Notes under the pieces: generated by a model
The model's database searches: none
What the model saw: only the letters and a program-made list of their open reading frames with translations
Told to the model about the DNA's origin: nothing
In this document: positions 1,564-51,948 of the stretch, piece by piece
Numbering within the stretch: position 1 is the first letter of the stretch
Layout: the number at the start of each line of letters is the position of its first letter
From: Gamarada debralockiae
Taxonomy: Eukaryota; Ascomycota; Leotiomycetes; Helotiales; Hyphodiscaceae
Direction of reading: 5' to 3'
Assembly: GCA_002803225.1 (NCBI GenBank)
Contig: NXFV01002036.1
Location: forward strand, 26,122 to 90,121
Length of the DNA stretch: 64,000 nt
Made by a program: the position numbers and the translations under genes

Positions 1564-2678
1564 TTAATAATGGAAGCTGGGGCTTGGCTATTGGAGAGGG
1601 ATCTGGAGATACCTCCGGCGAGATTGACGATTAGAATGATACCACATGAGCACAGCTTCTTTTTCATTTGTCTTGGGAAGGGATGAAATGTCTGGGTTTG
1701 GCTTGGGTGGCCACATTTAGCATAGCGAGAGGCTTTGATGACTGGAGAGAAATGGAAAAAGACCTCGGGCACTATAGCGGCATTTGTAACCCCGATTTAC
1801 AACGTAATTCGGGTCTATTTCCTCGCACGGAGTCAATAATACAATTCGACTGTATAGAAATCCAACCAGCATTACTGTGATAGATGTTTTGTGCTTGATT
1901 GTATATAATTTCATCTCGTGGTCTCTCATGGCATTCTGAAAATCGATGTTGAAAATGCCCGGTTACGAAAAAGTGGGTCAATCAGCCACCCCCGGTTTGG
2001 CAACGATTCTCCATTGAACTACTGACTGGCAAACGAAGATCAACAAACCGTCCTCCAAGACTCCAACCTCCGCGCTGTTCTTGTTACCGTCGTACGATAC
2101 CACGAAAGTCTGCCATATCTTTGGGTACATGCGGTCATACCACGGAAGCGTATCACTCCACCCCCAGCGCCACGGCTTCTGCAGGGCGTCCACATTGTCC
2201 TATCAATGAGGAGAAAGCCTTCGACGACGCGGCCGCCTTCCTCTGGTTGTACGGAACCCCAAAACATAAATCCGACTACATCTCTTGTCGACATATCATA
2301 ATTCCATCCCCTGCCCATCGTGTTTGAGTCACAGACCGAGAATCAGCCCAGACTCGTGGCCTTCGATACAGACTGCTCGTCCATCCTTTTGACACACGGA
2401 AATTGGTGCGATAGTGGCGAGATTATATTGAAACGAATATTTCACGACACTAGCCTTGCAGGCTTTACTTGCGCGAGCGGACGCTACTCGAAGCCTGTAC
2501 TTCTGGGACAGACACAGCGGCTGTGTGCATGACCTAGAGGATCACGATTTCGACCTACACTTGGGTTCACGAATAGATACCACAACGATCTTGAGACTGA
2601 GTTTGAGACTCATGAATTTGCCAGAAGCCTCCTATATACCCGCGACCGAGGAAGAGCCCCAGGGCAGATGTTGGGACC
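1564..2678. other. intergenic region and probable long wc-1 leader
   Basis: About 1.1 kb without a convincing gene. The left part should hold the importin 3' UTR. The right part leads into wc-1 and contains several short out-of-frame ATGs, which would act as upstream ORFs if transcribed. Small open frames here have no recognisable domain and no fungal start context. Confidence 0.5.
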
Positions 2679-5630
2679 ATGAATCAGTTCTTTGGCACGC
2701 AATTCTCCCAACAGGATTTACAGGCGCGGCTGCAACAGAGGAGACGCAATGGATCTCTACAGACCATGTCGCTGGGACTACCAGTGCCGCAAGATAATGC
2801 CAACACGATGGATATGAGCGATATGGGTGGTGGCGATTCGCTGGACGATATTATCATGCAGAACAATAAGGAGTTACAACGGCGGCAGAGTCAACCGAGG
2901 CCATACCCGGGGCAGGAGATTGACCGCCGGTCGTCGATGATGGAGTTTGGTAACAGCAGTAGTAATCTTAATGGGTTTCAGTTCGGGCAACCAACTTCGA
3001 CAGTGGGGGATCCGGTTTTGAGGCGCCAATCGACAGGCGAATTGGATATGGTGACTGGATATGCGGATATGTCATTGGGGATGAATATACAAGGACCGCA
3101 GATGGGATTCTCTTCTGCAATGCAAACCTCCGAGCCGCTGACGATCGATACGAGTGCTTTTCCAGGGATGTCTGCAGATATGGTACAGGGAATGATGGGA
3201 TATGCATCCATGGGGATGGAAAGCATGTCTGAGGACGAGGTAAACATGAACATGTTCTCGCCGACCCATTTCTCGCAGGGCTTTGTAAATTCAATGGAGC
3301 CGATTCCAGACTTCATGATGCCGGGCAACCAACAAGATCCAATGCCCTCACATCGTGGGAGCATACATGAAGAGCCGGAAGAAATGATGCCTCCTATGTC
3401 TGGCATTGCAGCTTCTGGCATTGCAGCTTCTGGCATTGCAGCTTCTGGCATTGCAGCTTCTGGCATTGCAGCTTCCGGCAACAGCATCGTCAGTTCACCT
3501 GCAAACATGAAGCTGGCTCAGAGTATGGTGGACTACAGCTCTCCAGTAACGGCCAATATGCCACCGCCTCTTCCAAGTCAAGAGCCATCATACAGCATAC
3601 CAGCAGTTACCCTCGCAGCATCAGCACCAGAGATAGAAGTCACAACTAAGCCGGAGCCGAAGTCACCTGTTTACAAAAACATCTACTCGTCCAGTGGTTT
3701 CGACATGTTGGGAGCTTTGATGAAAGTTGCGACGAGGAAGAATCCCGAGATCAACATCGGAAAGGTCGACATGTCTTGCGCCTTCGTCGTTTGTGACATA
3801 ACCCAAGCCGACGTGCCTATTATCTACGTATCCGACATCTTCGAGCGACTTACAGGCTATACCAAGCATGAGGTGCTGGGTCGAAATTGTCGATTTCTGC
3901 AATCACCGGAAGGGAAGGTTCAAGCTGGTATACGAAGAGAATTTGTTGACAACGACTCGGTGTGGTATCTGAAGCAGAGGTTAAATCAAAAGAGAGAAGC
4001 TCAACGAAGTTTGATCAATTACCGCAAAGGGGGACAACCTTTCATGAATCTTTTGACTATGATACCCATCACCGGAGAGGATGGCGACGAGATCAAGTAT
4101 TATGTTGGATTCCAGGTCGATTTGGTAGAGAAGCCAACTTCCGTTGAGGGCAAGAACGCGAGTGGTTTGTATACCGTCGATTATTCACAAGGCATGTTAC
4201 CGCAATATGTTTGGCAACCACCAGACGGAACACGGCGTGCGGATAATGGGCAGACGATAAGCCGAGATGATGTTTCAACCGTGTTGAGTTCCATCAATAG
4301 CAGTACCGAGTCAGAGCTGATGAAGCGGATGTGGGATAAGGTACTTTTGGAGAACACGGATGATGTCGTTCATGTCCTTTCTCTCAAAGGCCTCTTTCTC
4401 TACCTATCACCATCTGCTCGGAAAGTCCTGGAATACGATGCTTCAGAGCTCGTCGGTACAGCACTATCCTCTGTTTGCCACCCCAGTGATATTGTCCCGG
4501 TCACTCGAGAGTTGAAGGACACTTCGACTGGAGCTCCAGTGAATGTGGTTTTCCGAATACGAAGGAAGAAGAGCGGATACACTTGGTTTGAAAGTCATGG
4601 CTCATTATGCGTCGAACAAGGCAAGGGCCGAAAATGCATCATTCTTGTCGGAAGAGAAAGACCTGTCTATGCCCTCGCTCGACACGACATTGATGCGGCT
4701 GGAGGAATTGGTGAGAATGAAATGTGGACTAAACTGTCAACTTCTGGGATGTTCCTGTTCGTCTCATCAAACGTACGGACGCTCCTTGATCGGTCGCCTG
4801 AAGACTTGGTTGGTACCAGTATTCAAGCCCTCATGCGATCGGAGTCGAGAGTTGAGTTCGGTCGCTCCCTTGAGAAGGCAAGAACTGGGAAGCGAGTAAC
4901 ATACAAGCACGAAGTCCTGAACAAGAGGGGCCTTGTACTTCAAGCGCAAACGACGTTGTACCCGGGTGACGCCACAGAAGGCCAAAAGCCGACCTTCTTG
5001 GTAGCCCAAACACGACTACTCAAGGCTTCGTCTCGATCCGTTCCTACTGGTCTAGGCTCTCACGGAAACAGCTCCAGACCCATCACCTCAATAGGAAACG
5101 TGGATCATCACTCAGAAGACTCAACATCTAGATGCCACCCCTCCGCATTGGCCTCAGTCAAGCAGGAAGAGGAAATGACTCCAAGATCCAGTACTTCACT
5201 ACCAGGTCCAATTACTCAAGCAGGTGGCGGTGGCCTCCAAATTGGAACACAAGATATGGCCCTCGCATCCGAAGACAACATCTTCGACGAACTGAAAACA
5301 ACACGCTGCACGAGTTGGCAATTTGAGCTGCGACAAATGGAGAAGTCGAATCGACTGCTAGCGGAAGAACTAGCATCTCTCTTATCCAACAAGAAGAAGC
5401 GGAAGCGAAGGAAAGGAGCCGGTCATCTGCAGCGCGATTGTGCGAATTGCCATACTCGCGTCACGCCAGAATGGAGAAGAGGCCCGTCCGGACAGAGAGA
5501 TTTGTGCAATAGTTGTGGACTACGATGGGCGAAGCAGGTGAGTAAAAGCAGTCCCGATAATAGCGGGACCATCCGGTATACGCGGGGCTGGTCATCCCAA
5601 CCATCAGATTCAGAGACTAGTCGAAGTTGA
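2679..5630 (+). CDS. wc-1: white collar 1: blue-light receptor and GATA transcription factor
   Basis: 983 aa, apparently intronless. WC-1 binds FAD, forms the white collar complex with WC-2 and drives light-induced and clock-controlled transcription in the nucleus. Order of parts: a Met/Gln/Ser-rich N-terminus with a GIAAS repeat (about 241-265), a LOV domain (about 341-485) with the flavin motif GRNCRFLQ at 401-408, in which Cys404 is the expected photo-adduct residue, a second PAS domain (about 557-660), a third PAS (about 681-790), a basic NLS (KKKRKRRK, 905-912) and one GATA zinc finger with Cys921, Cys924, Cys943 and Cys946 (C-x2-C-x18-C-x2-C). N. crassa WC-1 is longer because of its poly-Gln tracts. 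The start at 2679 is the first ATG of the open frame; an upstream exon cannot be excluded. All key residues are present, so a functional photoreceptor is expected. Confidence 0.96.
3399..3473 (+). repeat. 15-bp coding minisatellite in wc-1, 5 copies
   Basis: Five identical tandem 15-bp units (TCTGGCATTGCAGCT) encode repeated Gly-Ile-Ala-Ala-Ser just upstream of the LOV domain. The identity of the copies points to recent slippage, and copy number is likely to vary between strains. Confidence 0.97.
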
Positions 5631-6644: not shown

Positions 6645-7952
6645 TCAGTCTTCAAGCCTCCAAATGTCGTCGTCATCTGAGAAATCCTTCTTCATCAGCT
6701 CTAGAGAGACCTCAGTGGCGACCAATTTTGCATCGTCTTCAAGAGACATTCCACCCAGCATTTCCGTCAAATCCTCGACTTCAACCCCCAAAATCTTCGC
6801 GCTGTCCGCCCCCCAATGCTCCGCCAAGTACTTCAAAGTACTTTTGTTGTACCATGATCCCGTATTTCCCCAGGTTCTACCATCAATGAGTTTCAGAATC
6901 TTCTGCTCAAAACCCTTTCTTTGCAGCTTGTGATTTCGCATCAATGAGGTAATAAAGTGCCAATACACGTTCTTGAGGCCCGGTCGCTCATTGTTTCTGA
7001 ATTGCAAGGTGGTGTTGTTTAATTCGGATAATTTGATACCGTTGGGTTTCTCTCCGAGGACTGAGTCGTCAAGGACGATGAATGTAAACTCAGCTGGCTT
7101 TCCGTCTGGCTTCTCGTGGCCAATCAATGTGACTTGGGCTCTGTCGAACATTCTTTCGAGGGCACGGTGGATGACGAGGCCGTTGTCCAACGACCACATT
7201 AACTCAAATCCTCTGCTAGGCTGCCCGAACATGAACCCCATATTTTTGAAGCCGATTTGGTGCGGGACAATGTGTGCTGCTGTGATGCAACCCGCTGCAC
7301 ACCATTCCTTCGTGATTGGACACCATGACTTATTTTTGTCTGCGGGATCGTAGGTTCCATAGTATGCTTTCAAAGCATTCTTCCATTCGTTGTGGGGGCC
7401 GTCTCGTTTGTCTTCAGGGTGAGATAGGTCGCGGTCTTCCATGAACATTTTGGCGACAGCTTCCGAGTAAGCCGAAGGCCAGTCGATTTCCTTTGTAGCG
7501 TCCAACTTGTGTTGAAGTTTCTTGATGTTGCGGGCCACGAGAATTTGAGTTTGAGCAATTCTGTAGCGGTGCTTCTGCGCAAGATCTTTCTGGTCCTTGA
7601 AATCATCGTCGCTGATCTCGTATTTCTTCTTCAGTTCGATCAGGCCTTCTTCGACATTTCTCCAGGCTTTCTCATCTACGAGTAGGAGCTCGTGCTGGTC
7701 ATTCAAAAAGTCCAGGGACTTTGAAGATGAATTTGAAGAGGTGGTAGATCTGATAGTGTAGCTGGAGACCTTTTCTCTAAGGGACTGGGACTGTACGGAG
7801 AGTGTGTTGGAGACTTGGCGGTTTCGCTGCGGGAGCAAAGATGAAGTTCTCGTAGGCACAACGTGGATTTCATGTTCGAACCGTTTCTCTCGATCACGGA
7901 TGATGCCTTTGTCGAGGTTGCCCATGGCGAAATTGAAGTCTCTCGGAGGCAT
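6645..7952 (-). CDS. HNH_2-type endonuclease-like protein
   Basis: 435 aa, single exon. A Ser-rich N-terminal region (about 35-85) and a helical part (90-200) precede an HNH core: Cys211 and Cys218, then AAHIVPHQIG with His227 and His231, and about 25 residues on the helix LDNGLVIHRALERMFD with Asn257 and His262. This arrangement matches the fungal HNH_2 (HNH endonuclease, PF13391-like) proteins, a large lineage-expanded group in Pezizomycotina with unknown substrate. The C-terminus is acidic (MKKDFSDDDDIW). The ATG at 7952 gives a complete N-terminus; an in-frame MPPRDFNFAM start fits. Nuclease activity is inferred from the residues only. Confidence 0.8.
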   Translation of the reverse strand: MPPRDFNFAMGNLDKGIIRDREKRFEHEIHVVPTRTSSLLPQRNRQVSNTLSVQSQSLREKVSSYTIRSTTSSNSSSKSLDFLNDQHELLLVDEKAWRNVEEGLIELKKKYEISDDDFKDQKDLAQKHRYRIAQTQILVARNIKKLQHKLDATKEIDWPSAYSEAVAKMFMEDRDLSHPEDKRDGPHNEWKNALKAYYGTYDPADKNKSWCPITKEWCAAGCITAAHIVPHQIGFKNMGFMFGQPSRGFELMWSLDNGLVIHRALERMFDRAQVTLIGHEKPDGKPAEFTFIVLDDSVLGEKPNGIKLSELNNTTLQFRNNERPGLKNVYWHFITSLMRNHKLQRKGFEQKILKLIDGRTWGNTGSWYNKSTLKYLAEHWGADSAKILGVEVEDLTEMLGGMSLEDDAKLVATEVSLELMKKDFSDDDDIWRLED

Positions 7953-8435
7953 GATGTTGGTAGAACTTTGATGTTGTTGGTGTTGAAATCAAAATTGAAC
8001 TGATTTGAAGTTGGTTGAATGTTGACAAATATTCAGAAGGTTGTGCGATTTTTATCTCTCCAAGGTGACTCAGTCCAAATAGCAATCGCATAGTTATTTG
8101 GTTGCGACCAGCTCAAATAGGAGGAGCTAGATTAAGCGAAAAACCAAGTTCACGATTCGAGGCTCCGACTCAGAATTACGAGATTACGAAAGGACTTCTG
8201 GCCAGGTCTACCAATCCAGCATGCAGCTGTGCAAATTAAATTGGAGACAGCCATGAGAAGAAACAGACTGCATTTATTCTACACAATGCTGGGTATTCTT
8301 CTAGGTGAAAAACAGGATTGAAATTTATGCCCGTCATCATGAACTGCTTATGCCAATAATGCCACCTCAAATGAGGCCACAGCCAAGTCGTGAAATCACC
8401 TCAAGAAACGCATGAACATACTGACAACACTGAAT
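7953..8435. other. intergenic region
   Basis: Promoter side of the HNH gene and 3' side of the PP28 gene. AT-rich; no gene or RNA feature seen. Confidence 0.5.
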
Positions 8436-10779: not shown

Positions 10780-11547
10780 CTATTTAGCCATCCACTCCAC
10801 CATTGCGTCGTGTGCAACAGCAGATGAAAAGTCGTTTTCCTCCAGCCACTGTTCAGCAGTCTTCATTTCCGCATGTTTCAAATAGAATTCATCTAGGAGG
10901 TTGTTCAAGTCTGCATATGAAATCGTCAGCAGACATTATCAGTCGAAGAGGAGACGCATACCGCTTATCGGCAAAGGCCGTGAAGGCTGGAGAGAAAATC
11001 GGGACATGTGCTCGTGTAGAAGAATAAGGTCTCTGGGTATGGGTGTTCCTGACAACCTTCAGTATAATATTGCAATGAGATCCGACAACCTCAAACCTTT
11101 TGGGATGCGGTAAACAGATGGACTTTCAACGCATTTGCCATCCTCCACGTCGTCTACATACTGATCGAAGAACGTCCGAATAATTTCTTGCATCATGAAG
11201 GTATTGGGCATGAGCGTGGCGCCGTTAGAAACTGTTTATAAATTGTTAACAAACTGTTCCTGGAGTTGTAGCGTATACAGACATGGCATATTCTTTGACA
11301 CAGTCGGGTAAACTAGGCCATCTGACGAAACCTCCACGCCATCATCTGCTGGATCATCGTTTCCCTGTTTCTTGTGATCGAAAAGGTTCGATCTCTGCCG
11401 GGAATTGTAGCGTAGTAAAGAGGCTGGGAACGAAGAATGGATTGAGATCACTGAAAATTGCCGTTGTTCCCTGTTCGTACGGCCAAGATTGCTGCTTGGG
11501 GGGACGAAGCGCCTGACGATAACAAATTGGCAAGTACGACGGAGCAT
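10780..11547 (-). CDS. Tse2-like ADP-ribosyltransferase toxin-domain protein A
   Basis: Four exons (11547-11283, 11231-11097, 11048-10962, 10910-10780) give 205 aa with all three introns in phase 1. Domain landmarks in order: FPASLLRYN, SNGATLMPN, VYRIPKG, PRDLILLHEH...FSLQP and a C-terminal AEQWLEEN helix. This is the layout of fungal proteins assigned to the Tse2 ADP-ribosyltransferase toxin family (PF18648), named after the Pseudomonas type VI effector; the fungal members have unknown targets. The N-terminal 45 residues differ from the neighbour and are Arg/Ser-rich. No signal peptide. The first donor (GTCTGT) is weak, so the join at 11283/11231 is the least certain. Shared intron phases with gene B show common origin by tandem duplication. 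Activity has not been shown and is only inferred from the family. Confidence 0.7.
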
Positions 11548-11916
11548 GGTGGGACAATAAGATTGGGGCCATTGATGGAGGGGTCTTGGGAGAGATGGGC
11601 TTGGGATTTAAGAGGCGGAAATCTAACATGGCAAGTTCCGATAAGATTTACAGTAGAACGGGGCCAATGAGTCATTTGCAATTTGCTATAGCTCCCGCAT
11701 TCATGTGACACTCTTGGGAAACCGTGAGGGGTAACACCATGGTCCAATATATCCTAATAGCTCTAAGTTTGCCAGACCCATTGTTGACCGTCCCAGTACC
11801 TATACTTTTGTATTGTTCGCCCCACACCCATTCTGATGATGAAGACGTCGCTTGTTGATACGTAGAAGATGACGCTGACGATTGTACATACCTTTTTGGT
11901 TATGAGGCAGTGAGGG

Positions 11917-12546
11917 CTACGTCGGGTTAGGGTATCTCTGAAGCCACTGCTCTTTGTTCAAGATTGTCGAGTTCCTTTCCAAGAAATCGGTTATTTTTCC
12001 ATTCAGCTCTAGAAGTATGATGTATGATGGTTTAGCCCACGTGCGTGTTGAGGCGACAGTCGATTATTACCACTGAGAGACATTTCTTTGGCCGCTTGCA
12101 GAGAATAATGATCGGAGCGTTCATGCACAAGTATAAGGTCGTCAGGTAGTGGAGTTCCTATTAGCCTGAGCATTCATTACGAATGAAAGAGTCAGAACCA
12201 GATAACCCACTCACCTGCAGGAACAGAATAAACGATAACGTCGCTGCCTTGGCTAGATACTAATCGTTTTTGAAAATCCGAGTTTGGACGCATCGAGGCG
12301 CCATTTGGGGCTGAATTTTATGGTTATCATATATGAACAAAACTGATATGATTCATACAGGTATGGCTTACCAGCATAAGATGTTGGATCAAGGGCCTTA
12401 GGTTTAACCTTGCCCGCTTCAGTGAGAAGATCGTAACTTCCTTTTCGCTTCGTTGACCATTCTCGAAGCCTTATGAGGCGGCCGTTGTTCACTCGGAACA
12501 ATTCCTTTGGGACGACCTTGAATGAATTGATGAATGAAGACGACAT
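11917..12546 (-). CDS. Tse2-like ADP-ribosyltransferase toxin-domain protein B
   Basis: Four exons (12546-12372, 12310-12215, 12157-12071, 12008-11917) give 149 aa, again with three phase-1 introns. Landmarks: VVPKELFRVN, RLREWSTKRKGS, APNGASMRPN, VIVYSVPAG, LPDDLILVHERSDHYSLQ, ELNGKITDFLE and EQWLQRYP. It is closer to the typical fungal Tse2-like protein than gene A. The frame closes with TAG at 11917-11919 right after PNPT. A duplicate of this exon at 12960-13115 has a sense codon at that point and reads on, so this C-terminus may be shortened. It lies head-to-tail behind gene A on the same strand. No antitoxin-like or immunity gene was identified next to the pair. Confidence 0.78.
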
Positions 12547-12659: not shown

Positions 12660-12930
12660 TTGTGCCATATTTCGTGTGAAATATCATGGAACCATACTAG
12701 TGGAACCATCCTTCCCTGGTTTAAAATGGCAAAGGTTCCATCTGGCTATAAGCTTATGGTTCCATGGTATGTATGCTTGATGGATGCACTATATATGGTC
12801 AGGCATCAACCTCAGACAAGGGCATGTGAGCCTGGCCACGCCGTATATCTATCTGATTGGCTAAAAACCACATGACTGGGTTCCATGGTATCGAATGGTT
12901 CCATCCAGACCTGTATGGAAATGGTATAGT
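12660..12930. repeat. cluster of GGTTCCAT / ATGGAACC motifs
   Basis: At least six copies of GGTTCCA or its complement lie within 270 bp, in both orientations; three share the longer core ATGGTTCCATGRTAT (about 12684, 12757 and 12878). It sits exactly between Tse2-like gene B and the displaced copy of that gene's last exon. It could be a small non-autonomous element or a recombination footprint. Confidence 0.5.
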
Positions 12931-12949
12931 TCCTTCCATTGCCGCCGGA

Positions 12950-13115
12950 TGGCAGGTAACATTGGTATTGTTTGTCCTAAACCCGCTCTGGCGATGAAGA
13001 TGTCATGTGAGGCAGTGGAGGGCTCTGTGGGGTTAGGGTATCTCTGAAGCCACTGCTCTTTGTTCAAGATCATCGAGTTCCTTTCCAAGACATCAGTTAT
13101 TTTTCCATTCAGCTC
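12950..13115 (-). pseudogene. displaced copy of the terminal exon of Tse2-like gene B
   Basis: The stretch matches 11800-12012 of gene B: LNKEQWLQRYPNPT is kept, along with part of the 3' flank (GATGAAGATGTC against GATGAAGACGTC). Similarity stops at the exon 4 splice acceptor, so exons 1-3 are absent. Single-base changes and small indels separate the two copies. It is a partial DNA-level duplication without its own start. Confidence 0.75.
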
Positions 13116-13730
13116 TGCTCATGCGGCCTGTATATTACATTGACCCACTTAGTACAATTCTTTTAGGAGGCAGTCTCTTGGTAAGAACTAGTGGTTTTCA
13201 GCCAATAGTGTTACAGATCTATAATTACAAATACAGTCCCAAAAGCACCAAAAGGTCAAACTCTGAAGTTATTCTTCCCCTTATGAGCTCTGGGTTGGGG
13301 GGGGGGGGGTTCTTCTGGCTGGGGAGTTGTAGGATTTGTCGTTTAGATACCCAATGAAAGCTTTCTCCCGAACTTTGTTGGGTTTTGCTGTGACACGTAA
13401 GACCTGAAATTCATGCTTTGTTTGAATACTAATACTGTATGTACAGTCTTTGCTTGCCTACTATGCTCAGTCATGGAGAAGATGTCACCCGAAGTTTTTA
13501 GAAAGCAGTGCCATTGTATGCAATGAAGGGCGGTGATGAAATGGACGAGAATTCTCACTTAGCCTTAATTGAATGCCATCTCGACAGCAAAATGATGACG
13601 AGTCTGATGCACGTATCAATAACATATTCCAGGTCAACAACGATAGGAGCATGGACAAGGCCAATCATACTACACTCTGAGAGAGAGTCAATATAACCGA
13701 AGCATTTCGGCGACTTCGATATATCTAAGT
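13116..13730. other. intergenic region
   Basis: Beyond the poly-G run no gene, RNA or clear repeat was seen; it includes the 3' flank of the decarboxylase gene. Confidence 0.4.
13297..13309 (+). repeat. poly-G run (13 G)
   Basis: Uninterrupted run of 13 guanines in non-coding DNA; length is prone to slippage and to sequencing error. Confidence 0.9.
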
Positions 13731-48669: not shown

Positions 48670-49386
48670 GGGCGGCGACGAAATCAACGTACCAGGGATG
48701 GCCGTGCATCAGGCAGCAAATCTGATAATGCAAAACCAAGGCCAGGGAATGGCAAACTTGGTATGCCAAGGAAGACTTGCTAGGGGGCGATTGCAGTCTT
48801 ATGAGAGGAGTACGAATGCCAGGCGGTAGTTCGAGCGGAGGAGGACGGGATTCGGATGCTGAAGACATATCTCGAAGCCTGAACCACAATTATTCAGATT
48901 ATTTGATTAATTAATGGGCAGTTTGAGGGATGACAGCCGTAGACGAGGATAGTGTTCGAGTTTCGCAACTAGAAAAGCAGCGAAACATGGGCGAGAACGT
49001 TAGAATGAAGATTTTTAGAGATGTAGACAAGGTAGATTAGATTTCATACTGTGCATAGATTTCAATAGAGGTTTAAAGTAGATCTTATCTTGTCCAAGTC
49101 GCTGGCGATGAAAGAAAAGGGGAGAAGCCCATTCGGTAATAAATATGAAGAGAATTTTGGTGCCACGGCTAGCGTCAATATCACGTGCAGTCGCGTGTGT
49201 CGCGATCTCGCGACATTTCCGAACAATCTTTCTCTTCTCGACAACAAATCGCGTATCAACTCCGAAACTCCGCAACGAAACTCTCCAGCGCGTCTAATTT
49301 ACATACCACGACTACTTGATCTTTGGCGAAGGGAAAACCGTAGATCTTGACCGACAGTGCTTCGATCCTATCCGCATCCACCCACC
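48670..49386. other. intergenic region with a palindrome
   Basis: No gene seen. Upstream of the kinase gene there is a perfect inverted repeat, TGTCGCGA-TC-TCGCGACA, at 49198-49215, preceded by CACGTG at 49182-49187. Both could be protein-binding sites. Confidence 0.5.
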
Positions 49387-51948
49387 ATGGCAAGAGGAAG
49401 AAGAGGAGGAGGAGGAGGAGGAGGAGGAGGAGAAGGAAGTGGAGGAGGAGGAGAAGGAAGTGGAGGAGGAGGAGGAGGAAGTGGAGGAGGAAGTGGAGGA
49501 GGAGGAGGAGGAAGTGGAGACTCGACATCGCTGCCGAGGACACCATCGCAGAGTGTTCACGAGGACGCCGAAGTTGGAAACCACGAAAAGCCCACTCCCT
49601 ACAAAATAACCTCGAACCTTGGTTCCGATGCTATCTTGCCAGACAGGGCGATCCGACTGGTAACGGAACTGCACGGCTATACGATGGACTGCCAGGATTC
49701 TCTCTTTGAACAACTCTACAAAGAGCTCATAGAGCAGATTCCTACGTTTATTTCCGTACGCTGGGACGACCTCGCAGAGAGCTTGCAAGCTTGCGAAGAA
49801 TGGCTCACTTGGTTAAACAAGCCCTGTCAAAATAATTTGGATGGACTCTTGCAGAAACTCTGCGATATAATCCACTCTACTGTGGAGGAAGAAGTTCGAG
49901 ATCGTCCTCAGAAGCGAATCTGCTTCCTGGGCAATACAGTGGTGAAACCGTCCGCCCCAGGGAATAGCTCGAAGTATCCTCCGAAGCCTGACTTCGTGAC
50001 CACTGAGTCTGATACCGAAGACAGAGGATGGTCATGTTACGAAACAATATGGGAACATAAGACATCGGGGGGAGACAAAGATCGCGATGGTGATCTCTGT
50101 GACTTCATGGTACGCGCCGTCCTGACCATACGAGATTGCATATTGCGACATTTCATAATCACCGTCTTAGTCCAGGGGACCAAGTTCAGGCCCTTCATTG
50201 TCGACCCCAGTGGTGTTTGCAGGTTTCAGCAGGCAGACATTGTTGATAATACCGCTATATTCATCCGGTTCGTCGCCACTCTCTTATTTTTGAATCGTCG
50301 GAACCTTGGGTATCATTCCAACGATATTCCCGAGAATTCCAACGATACTCCCGAGAATTCCAACGATACTCCCGAGAATTCCAACGATACTCCCGAGGAC
50401 AAGCCTCTTATTCCTCTATCAGTTGGTGATCGCCAGCTGCTCATCAAAACAACTCCCCTCGCACATCCCACACGAGATCATCTGGTTGGCAGAGGAACGT
50501 ATGTCTATTTGGCAAGGGATGCGGATGGGCCAGAAACCGAATTTCCGTTGGTGGTGAAAGCCAGCTGGCAAGAAACATCTCGAGAACGTGAGGTAGACAT
50601 ATTACGTCGTCTACAAGGCGTTGCAGGTGTCCCGAAAGTCTTGTGTGAAGCTACTGAACATCCCTTTGATACCACTTCCAAGATCCGGCGAGGTTTTACC
50701 AACGGCGACCGATACGATTTCACCCAGGGACAGTACGCAGCGAATAGAACCCCCCCTACGTACGGTAGTACTAGCGCACGTAGTGCTAGTGAAGGGACGG
50801 GTGGGCTTTTGAAAGGAAAGAGAGAGCTCAGAGGGGCAAAAAGTTCTTCCCGCAAGAAACAAAAGGGCAACCCCGCACCAGCCGAATTCAAGCCGCGATG
50901 CCGTCGCCTGTTCGTTATGCCTTATTACGGTGCCCCCATCAGCGCGAAGAAGCATCTTGATAATACCGCCATGACGGATGTTGAAAGATTGAGGGCCACG
51001 CGTGATGTTTTAAGAACCATCGGCAATGCGTATGTACATGAGTCACCTGCTATACATAGGGATATATCTCCTGACAATATCGCTGTATGGAGGCAAGGTC
51101 AGAAGCATCCTTATGAGTCCATGGATGGCCAGTGCGGATATCTGCTTGATTGGGATATGGGGAAAACGCTGGGCTTAGACGAGAGGTCATTGCATCCGAG
51201 GTCGGACAATGACCGGACTGGTACCACGTATTACATCGCGGCGAGCATATGTGCAGACGAGTATGAGGGGCCGCATTTGGCGTGGTACGACGCAGAGAGT
51301 GTGTTTTGGGTGTGGCTTCTATTTGTGATGCAGAGGGCGGGAAAAACATGGGATAAATATTTTGACCGCCTTACCAGCGAAAGAGAGCTAAGTTCAATGT
51401 CCGACATTCGGGTTAGCATATTGTCAAAGGATTCCTGGAAAAAATTCACTGCTCATCCTGATATCAACCCATCCCTTATCAGGCTCCTCTCGAAATTACG
51501 ACTTGAATTTTTTTTTGATGAAGAGCAAGGACCGACTTACGAATATGAGGCTCGGAAGTGGGAACATACCAAAGACAAAGTGAAGGTTCGTCTGGACTTC
51601 TTAGCCGGCCTCTTCGAGCAATGCGCGGCCGAGCTCGACGACGAAGGTGGGTCCGGCGGCGGCGGCGGCGGCGGCGGCGCGGCAAATAGCACGAAGAAAG
51701 GACCCGGTGGACCAAAGGGTGGTGCGAAGAAAGGACCCGGTAGACCAAAGGGTGTTGCGAAGAAAGGACCCGGTAGACCAAAGGGTGGTGCGAAGAAAGG
51801 ACCCGGTAGACCAAAGGGAGTTGCGAAGAAAGGACCCGGTAGACCAAAGGGTGGTGCGAAGAAAGAGAAGGCTCCTCCTCGTATTGGAAAGGCGACTCTG
51901 AAGACGAGAAGTCAAGGAGAGGCTGATGAAGTTGAACTATTGGGATGA
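49387..51948 (+). CDS. FunK1-type protein kinase-like protein with AT-hook tail
   Basis: 853 aa, single exon; start at 49387 in a strong context (CCACCATGG). Order of parts: Gly-rich N-terminus (RGRRGGGGG...), N-terminal alpha-helical region (about 75-330), a SNDTPEN repeat (311-338), then the kinase-like fold: LVGRGTYVYLARD (Gly-rich loop), PLVVKASW (Lys), HRDISPDN (His557-Arg-Asp559 ... Asn564), LLDWDMG (Asp588/Asp590 in place of DFG) and RTGTTYYIAASI with a WYDAESVFWV segment. This is the fungal-type FunK1 kinase pattern, a family expanded in many fungi and of unknown role. A Gly run (about 757-765) and five KKGPGRPKG units, which are AT-hook-like, form the C-terminus and suggest DNA contact. 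The key catalytic residues are present. Confidence 0.85.
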   Translation: MARGRRGGGGGGGGGEGSGGGGEGSGGGGGGSGGGSGGGGGGSGDSTSLPRTPSQSVHEDAEVGNHEKPTPYKITSNLGSDAILPDRAIRLVTELHGYTMDCQDSLFEQLYKELIEQIPTFISVRWDDLAESLQACEEWLTWLNKPCQNNLDGLLQKLCDIIHSTVEEEVRDRPQKRICFLGNTVVKPSAPGNSSKYPPKPDFVTTESDTEDRGWSCYETIWEHKTSGGDKDRDGDLCDFMVRAVLTIRDCILRHFIITVLVQGTKFRPFIVDPSGVCRFQQADIVDNTAIFIRFVATLLFLNRRNLGYHSNDIPENSNDTPENSNDTPENSNDTPEDKPLIPLSVGDRQLLIKTTPLAHPTRDHLVGRGTYVYLARDADGPETEFPLVVKASWQETSREREVDILRRLQGVAGVPKVLCEATEHPFDTTSKIRRGFTNGDRYDFTQGQYAANRTPPTYGSTSARSASEGTGGLLKGKRELRGAKSSSRKKQKGNPAPAEFKPRCRRLFVMPYYGAPISAKKHLDNTAMTDVERLRATRDVLRTIGNAYVHESPAIHRDISPDNIAVWRQGQKHPYESMDGQCGYLLDWDMGKTLGLDERSLHPRSDNDRTGTTYYIAASICADEYEGPHLAWYDAESVFWVWLLFVMQRAGKTWDKYFDRLTSERELSSMSDIRVSILSKDSWKKFTAHPDINPSLIRLLSKLRLEFFFDEEQGPTYEYEARKWEHTKDKVKVRLDFLAGLFEQCAAELDDEGGSGGGGGGGGAANSTKKGPGGPKGGAKKGPGRPKGVAKKGPGRPKGGAKKGPGRPKGVAKKGPGRPKGGAKKEKAPPRIGKATLKTRSQGEADEVELLG
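49399..49522 (+). repeat. GGA-type repeat coding poly-glycine at the FunK1 N-terminus
   Basis: Mixture of GGA triplets with GAAGTGGA interruptions, encoding Gly runs separated by EGS or GS. Length likely varies. Confidence 0.9.
50317..50400 (+). repeat. 21-bp coding repeat, 4 copies (SNDTPEN)
   Basis: Four tandem 21-bp units encode SNDIPEN, SNDTPEN, SNDTPEN and SNDTPED inside the FunK1-type gene, just before its kinase-like domain. Confidence 0.95.
51694..51858 (+). repeat. 33-bp coding repeat, 5 copies (AT-hook-like)
   Basis: Five tandem 33-bp units encode KKGPGRPKGGA or KKGPGRPKGVA (the first has GGPKG). GRP flanked by Lys is the core of AT-hooks. Alternating GGA/GVA units suggest a 66-bp higher-order duplication. 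Confidence 0.95.

What the first reader, a model, noticed from the sequence alone, without database searches (positions are those of the whole stretch)
10780..12546. Two tandem, intron-conserved Tse2-like toxin-domain genes in a fungal chromosome
Both genes carry the landmark segments of the Tse2 ADP-ribosyltransferase toxin family (seen in the sequence) and share three phase-1 introns, so they are old nuclear genes and not a recent bacterial insertion. They differ strongly in the N-terminus. Bacterial Tse2 needs an immunity protein; none is recognisable here, which raises the question of how the fungus tolerates the products or whether they act in fungal-fungal conflict, self/non-self recognition or have lost toxicity.
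Basis: partly seen in the sequence, partly recalled or inferred. Interest (0 to 1): 0.75.

Follow-up and report, generated by a model that had tools for sequence, protein, structure and literature searches.

The report
Paired Tse2-fold genes, one mitochondrial
This fungus carries two neighbouring genes that share a fold with a bacterial toxin, but they belong to an old fungal gene family whose second member looks targeted to mitochondria, so they are more likely built-in fungal enzymes than recently captured weapons.

Summary

A and B are two sides of one branch (SH-aLRT 100). Linkage recurs: of 14 genomes where I could read both, 8 have them adjacent, 2 on one contig, 4 apart. B proteins share an Arg-rich N-terminus with R-x-[FYL]-[SAT] (19 of 24), as in cleaved mitochondrial presequences; the window's A has none. 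B has replaced several polar residues that A keeps. No Tsi2-like gene was found.

Best reading (0.5): a domesticated pair of ADP-ribosyltransferase-fold proteins acting inside the fungus, A probably an active NAD+ enzyme, B a mitochondrial, shifted paralogue. Activity, target and toxicity are untested.

The parts
11917..12546 (-). Gene A (A-type): four exons 12546-12372, 12310-12215, 12157-12071, 12008-11917; 149 aa; Tse2-family domain over residues 14-141
   Evidence: Gene model; PF18648 132.6 bits; nearest relative the A part of Bachmanniomyces P0001, 78% over 138 columns
12009..12371 (-). Gene A introns lie within this span: 12371-12311 (61 nt), 12214-12158 (57 nt), 12070-12009 (62 nt), all GT..AG phase 1
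   Evidence: insertions in gene models of other species at the same sites
10780..11547 (-). Gene B (B-type): four exons 11547-11283, 11231-11097, 11048-10962, 10910-10780; 205 aa; Tse2-family domain over residues 43-184
   Evidence: Gene model; PF18648 133.8 bits; nearest relative the B part of Bachmanniomyces P0001, 79% over 153 columns
10911..11282 (-). Gene B introns lie within this span: 11282-11232 (51 nt), 11096-11049 (48 nt), 10961-10911 (51 nt), all GT..AG phase 1, at positions homologous to those of A
11455..11547 (-). Codons for the predicted mitochondrial presequence of B (residues 1-31), ending in R-Q-F just before S-V-I-S
   Evidence: R-x-[FYL]-[SAT] in 19 of 24 B rows against a mean of 2.2 in shuffles; targeting itself inferred
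11763..11899 (-). Downstream of the stop of A: out-of-frame remnants resembling the Ser-rich, Trp-rich C-terminal tail of some other A-type proteins
   Evidence: ORF translations compared by eye with P0050, P0069, P0089; not joined or restored
12959..13116 (-). Partial extra copy of the 3' end of A (exon 4 and flank) upstream of A
   Evidence: 13008-13116 against 11903-12010, 92.7% identity, and 12959-13004 against 11804-11849, 76%;
12665..12954 (.). Dispersed repeat (about 290 bp, MITE-like by guess) between gene A and the partial copy
   Evidence: Related stretches on 5 other contigs of the genome, 73-98% identity over the matched pieces; alignment

Best explanation
A and B are a domesticated pair of ADP-ribosyltransferase-fold (Tse2-fold) proteins made by an old duplication in Pezizomycotina. 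A stays in the cytosol or nucleus and keeps the conserved polar residues of its type, so it probably binds NAD+ and either transfers ADP-ribose to an internal target or splits NAD+. B is imported into mitochondria by a cleaved Arg-rich presequence and has several of those residues replaced, so it has a shifted or reduced activity on mitochondrial NAD+ or a mitochondrial target. The two genes tend to stay linked because their functions are coupled. Shown here: the gene models, introns, domain, predicted fold of close homologues, A/B split, residue differences, recurrent linkage. Inferred: localisation, NAD+ use, target, coupling.
Against: No biochemical or expression evidence. The amphipathic-helix test of the B N-terminus is mostly not significant (win_B reached by 10% of shuffles; only 2 of 25 rows at 5% or less), and 5 of 24 B rows lack the cleavage-like motif. 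In 4 of 14 genomes A and B lie apart, and several genera are listed with A only, so coupling is not strict. Three divergent A-like proteins (P0152, P0163, P0170) also have basic N-terminal extensions, so 'A = cytosolic' may not hold for all. Sequence profiles of A or B alone do not find Tse2 in the PDB at E<=10. The B model's Foldseek match is weak and its confidence moderate.
Confidence: 0.5

Rival explanations
1. A conflict or self/non-self module: A is a toxic NAD+ enzyme held in check until cells fuse, die or are invaded, and B (or another factor) modulates it, as in poison-antidote or incompatibility systems.
For: P. aeruginosa Tse2 overexpressed in yeast had antifungal activity (PMC6617251, passage read). 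Some genomes carry several A copies (Emericellopsis atlantica P0057, P0075, P0118). A and a residue-altered paralogue are often linked.
Against: A-type proteins are well conserved: median 59% identity to the window's A over 95 listed hits with 120 or more aligned residues, unlike typical fast-evolving conflict genes. Several genera are listed with A only, so B is hardly an obligate antidote; B looks sent to another compartment.
Confidence: 0.2
2. Both are pseudoenzymes: ART-fold proteins that no longer use NAD+ and serve as binding or scaffold proteins.
For: The one Tse2 row aligned does not share identical residues with A or B at T79/S80 and V109/K110, whose mutation reduces Tse2 toxicity (PMC3325213, passages; alignment). 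B has replaced several residues conserved in A.
Against: A keeps a near-invariant polar set over 45 diverse rows, as expected for a kept active site; the alignment to Tse2 (16-21% identity for A in structural matches) is too weak to place single residues.
Confidence: 0.2
3. An ordinary secreted toxin or effector acting on other organisms.
For: Toxin-family name; fungi do carry NADases with a TNT toxin-type domain at their surface (PMC7955114, abstract and outline seen).
Against: No signal-peptide-like hydrophobic stretch in A or B: best 11-residue mean hydropathy in the first 45 residues 0.72 and 1.09 (no dedicated predictor was run). B N-terminus reads as mitochondrial.
Confidence: 0.07

Closest known systems
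Tse2 of Pseudomonas aeruginosa (PDB 5AKO; PF18648), a T6SS effector with immunity protein Tsi2
   Different: Eukaryotic, intron-bearing, two linked paralogues; no Tsi2-like gene found in the genome; B carries a mitochondrial-type N-terminus; toxicity-linked Tse2 residues not identical in a weak alignment. T6SS genes were not searched for and are not expected in a fungus (recalled)
Fungal PF18648 proteins in public databases (for example Byssothecium circinans P0042 and P0002, Bachmanniomyces sp. S44760 P0001)
   Same: Relatives of the same types, 60-81% identical; all three carry PF18648, and P0042 and P0002 are already named Tse2-domain proteins by a source
   Different: I found no study of them in the papers I could search; the A/B distinction, presequence and linkage are read here
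Bacterial ART-fold polymorphic toxins with fungal members (Tox-ART families; Biol Direct 2012, PMC3482391, passages read)
   Same: That survey already lists ascomycetes, basidiomycetes or fungi among carriers of some ART-fold toxin families
   Different: The passages seen concern other ART families and do not name Tse2; whether any equals PF18648 was not tested
Fungal TNT-domain surface NADase (AfNADase, Nat Commun 2021, PMC7955114; abstract and outline seen)
   Same: Fungal enzyme with a domain related to a bacterial NAD-directed toxin
   Different: Surface enzyme with a TNT domain; A and B are PF18648 and look intracellular; no homology tested here

Membership tests
Pfam PF18648 (ADPRTs_Tse2) | Profile score above the curated cut-off (26.6 bits) over most of the model | tested here: met
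   132.6 bits (positions 1-137 of 137) and 133.8 bits (2-137)
Pfam PF18648 (ADPRTs_Tse2) | Tse2 fold | tested here: met
Tse2-Tsi2 T6SS effector-immunity pair | Cognate Tsi2-type immunity gene | tested here: not met
   PF21643 no match at E<=10 in own genome, searched without regard to introns; positive control PA7 149.9 bits
Tse2-Tsi2 T6SS effector-immunity pair | Residues T79/S80 and V109/K110, whose double mutation reduces toxicity | tested here: inconclusive
   Opposite Q/K and L/V in the window's A, M/Q and L/L in its B, in an alignment with a single Tse2 row at very low identity
Tse2-Tsi2 T6SS effector-immunity pair | Delivery by a T6SS | not tested
   No search for T6SS genes; not expected in a fungus (recalled)
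Active NAD-dependent ADP-ribosyltransferase | NAD+ binding and ADP-ribose transfer or NAD+ hydrolysis | not testable with these tools
   Needs purified protein
Mitochondrial protein with cleaved presequence (gene B) | Basic N-terminus poor in acidic residues with R-x-[FYL]-[SAT] cleavage-like motif (motif recalled, not from a call) | tested here: met
   win_B lead 7 R/K, 1 D/E; motif in 19 of 24 B rows, 1000 shuffles mean 2.2, max 8; rows are related and not independent
Mitochondrial protein with cleaved presequence (gene B) | Amphipathic helix near the N-terminus | tested here: inconclusive
   Hydrophobic moment of win_B reached by 10% of shuffles; 2 of 25 rows at 5% or below
Secreted fungal effector | Signal peptide | tested here: inconclusive
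   Hydropathy scan only, no signal-peptide predictor: no 11-residue segment above 1.1 in the first 45 residues of A or B

The most novel reading that the evidence does not exclude
Pezizomycotina keep a linked, compartment-split NAD+ module derived from a Tse2-type toxin: a cytosolic enzyme A and a mitochondrial, residue-altered paralogue B. Together they act on the fungus itself, for example setting mitochondrial NAD+ or triggering a self-directed death or quiescence programme, without a Tsi2-type immunity protein.
Probability: 0.2. Interest if true: 0.85.

Novelty: new variant of a known kind. Interest (0 to 1): 0.5.

Why it matters
A fold known as an inter-bacterial toxin has been kept for a very long time in fungal nuclear genomes as two often linked paralogues, one of which appears to go to mitochondria. 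If the proteins use NAD+, this is an apparently unstudied endogenous NAD+-using system in a large part of the Ascomycota, with lichen-forming, insect-associated, saprophytic and pathogenic genera among its carriers. It makes a general question testable: what a toxin domain does once its bearer must live with it and no dedicated immunity protein is present.

Tried and rejected
Recent bacterial insertion: rejected by shared introns and the family tree. Rooting the fungal tree with PA7 Tse2: rejected, end branch 6.55 changes per column, so the root and a bacterial origin are left open. Prokaryotic relatives of A by fungal peptide patterns in genome contigs: 64 stretches, 0 relatives; viral contigs: 9 stretches with A1 and 31 with A2, 0 relatives; these patterns are fungal, so they say little about distant forms. 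With PF18648 itself, 11 of 369 sampled genomes of the class of PA7 have a match (all 11 over the cut-off), and 3 of 398 of its phylum (2 over the cut-off); PA7 is counted in both, so bacterial carriers exist but are sparse there. Window proteins and fungal profiles against PDB sequences: only chance-level hits, Tse2 not found. C-terminal tail of some A-type proteins as DUF2510: below cut-off (P0053 E 0.0065, P0050 E 0.26). B as obligate antidote of A: disfavoured, because several genera are listed with A only. Papers: I saw no study of fungal Tse2-domain proteins (open-licence PMC only; some searches listed every match, that is 4, 4, 0 and 0 papers; some searches listed 15 of 1515, 20 of 39, 10 of 382 and 12 of 57). 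PMC7955679 names the Pfam family only as one set used in clustering (passage); PMC10038667 only in a table (passage); PMC7043769 gave nothing on catalysis (passage); PMC10281587 describes Tse2 as NAD-dependent ADP-ribosyltransferase (passages). Robb et al. 2016 (Tse2 structure) not read; known from citing passages.

Full report
What is there. The region holds two genes on the minus strand. By splicing at GT..AG sites in the frames that keep the domain, gene A is 12546..11917 (149 aa) and gene B 11547..10780 (205 aa), 369 bases apart, A upstream. Each has four exons and three phase-1 introns of 48-62 nt. Both spliced products match PF18648 over the whole model (132.6 and 133.8 bits, cut-off 26.6). 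A search of the whole genome (54.3 Mb, 1112 contigs) with PF18648 finds only these two places, and a search with the A-type homologue P0042 finds six places, all at this locus: exons of A, part of B, and the partial copy described below.

The introns are old. They split codons 59, 91 and 120 of A and 89, 134 and 163 of B, which are opposite each other in the alignment. In gene models of other fungi, 32 of 34 insertions of at least 8 residues in the 120 listed A-type hits (27 proteins), and 12 of 16 in 53 B-type hits (11 proteins), lie within 4 residues of those sites (for B I left out P0001 and P0162, which are A+B models, and A-like rows). I read them as retained introns. P0088 and P0146 show all three at once.

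The family. Protein searches gave 41 relatives for B and 134 for A, of which 120 were listed; the first search also contains A+B model P0001. The named ones that I recognise there are Pezizomycotina, and several are already named Tse2-domain proteins by a source. A profile of divergent members added Armillaria, Desarmillaria and Synchytrium (only the 7999 candidates sharing most words were scored). Over 95 A-type hits with 120 or more aligned residues, identity to the window's A is 41-71%, median 59%. I built a tree of 84 rows: 80 hits picked by hand from 161, P0001 cut in two, and the two window proteins; type labels came from BLAST scores to A and B. The 56 A and 28 B rows are two sides of one branch with SH-aLRT 100, and both sides hold Sordariomycetes, Dothideomycetes, Eurotiomycetes, Lecanoromycetes and Coniocybomycetes (quick method; class labels mostly recalled, Bachmanniomyces and Chaenotheca checked). 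The duplication therefore predates those classes, unless both genes moved together between fungi. In a tree of 100 rows with PA7 Tse2 added, the branch to Tse2 is 6.55 and the root cannot be trusted; the basidiomycete and chytrid rows group with divergent A-like rows outside the B clade. The window proteins lie nearest to Bachmanniomyces sp. S44760, a lecanoromycete: 78% for A, 79% for B.

Linkage. I looked at genomes whose listing lets me read both an A and a B from one assembly. Gene models run A and B exons together in Bachmanniomyces (P0001, A then B), Xanthocarpia lactea (P0061, A exons then B exon 4), X. ochracea (P0117, A exons then what reads by eye as B exon 2), and Neonectria ditissima (P0162, B then A). 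Consecutive locus tags on contigs of equal length occur in Purpureocillium takamizusanense, Colletotrichum karsti, Chaenotheca gracillima and Tolypocladium capitatum. Two more (Byssothecium circinans, Lizonia empirigonia) have both on a contig of the same length, distance unknown. Four have them on contigs of different length (Trematosphaeria pertusa, Tolypocladium ophioglossoides, Bimuria novae-zelandiae, Trichophyton tonsurans). That is 8 of 14 adjacent, 2 of 14 probably on one contig, 4 of 14 apart, read by hand; the window is not counted. Order is not fixed. Several genera are listed with A but not B (Emericellopsis with three A copies, Coccidioides, Histoplasma, Paracoccidioides, Elsinoe), so A does not seem to depend on B; hit lists are capped and clustered at 90% identity and small genes are often missed, so absence is soft.

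N-termini. B proteins share a basic N-terminus with R-x-[FYL]-[SAT] shortly before the domain: 19 of 24 rows of alignment A2, against a mean of 2.2 and maximum of 8 in 1000 shuffles (related rows are not independent). In the window the lead has 7 R/K and 1 D/E and ends NREQRQF-SVIS. This is the recalled pattern of a cleaved mitochondrial presequence. Against it, hydrophobic moments are mostly unremarkable (2 of 25 rows at 5% or less). Of 109 A-like hits with a recognisable core, 7 have more than 25 residues before it; three of these (P0152, P0163, P0170, all divergent) have basic extensions too. Neither A nor B of the window has a secretion-like hydrophobic segment.

Immunity and neighbours. 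The genome has no PF21643 (Tsi2-like) match at E<=10 (positive control; introns not regarded). The flanking genes look ordinary: a PP28-domain gene and a short gene without a Pfam match on one side, a pyridoxal-dependent decarboxylase and a NOP9-like gene on the other. The window also holds a PAS-GATA gene.

Local decay. A partial extra copy of the 3' end of A lies upstream (12959-13116), separated from A by a dispersed repeat of about 290 bp (12665-12954). Downstream of the stop of A, in other frames, lie remnants resembling a Ser- and Trp-rich tail that some A-type proteins carry; intact tails exist in other species.

Judgement. The toxin framing rests on the family name and on the fold. The evidence fits better with a domesticated, compartment-split pair acting within the fungus. 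I hold the overall reading at 0.5: the anatomy and history are well supported, the biochemistry is untested.

Noticed in passing
12665-12954: Dispersed repeat of about 290 bp with internal ATGGAACCAT-type inverted motifs; related stretches on contigs C987, C564, C69, C187 and C544 of the genome.
   Followed up: partly
12959-13116: Partial extra copy of the 3' end of gene A, 93% identical over its exon-4 part.
   Followed up: yes
2616-5627: Open frame with three PAS-type regions and a GATA zinc finger, resembling the white-collar-1 type of fungal light receptor (recalled).
   Followed up: no
6648-7988: Open frame with an HNH_2 endonuclease domain (29.2 bits, cut-off 21).
   Followed up: no
49351-51945: Open frame with a Pkinase_fungal domain (143.9 bits).
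   Followed up: no
P0050, P0053, P0069, P0074, P0077, P0089 (homologues): Some A-type proteins carry a C-terminal Trp-rich tail, single or doubled, faintly like DUF2510 but below its cut-off.
   Followed up: partly
P0001, P0061, P0117, P0162 (homologues): Public gene models that run exons of neighbouring A and B genes into one protein; annotation mergers or true fusions.
   Followed up: partly
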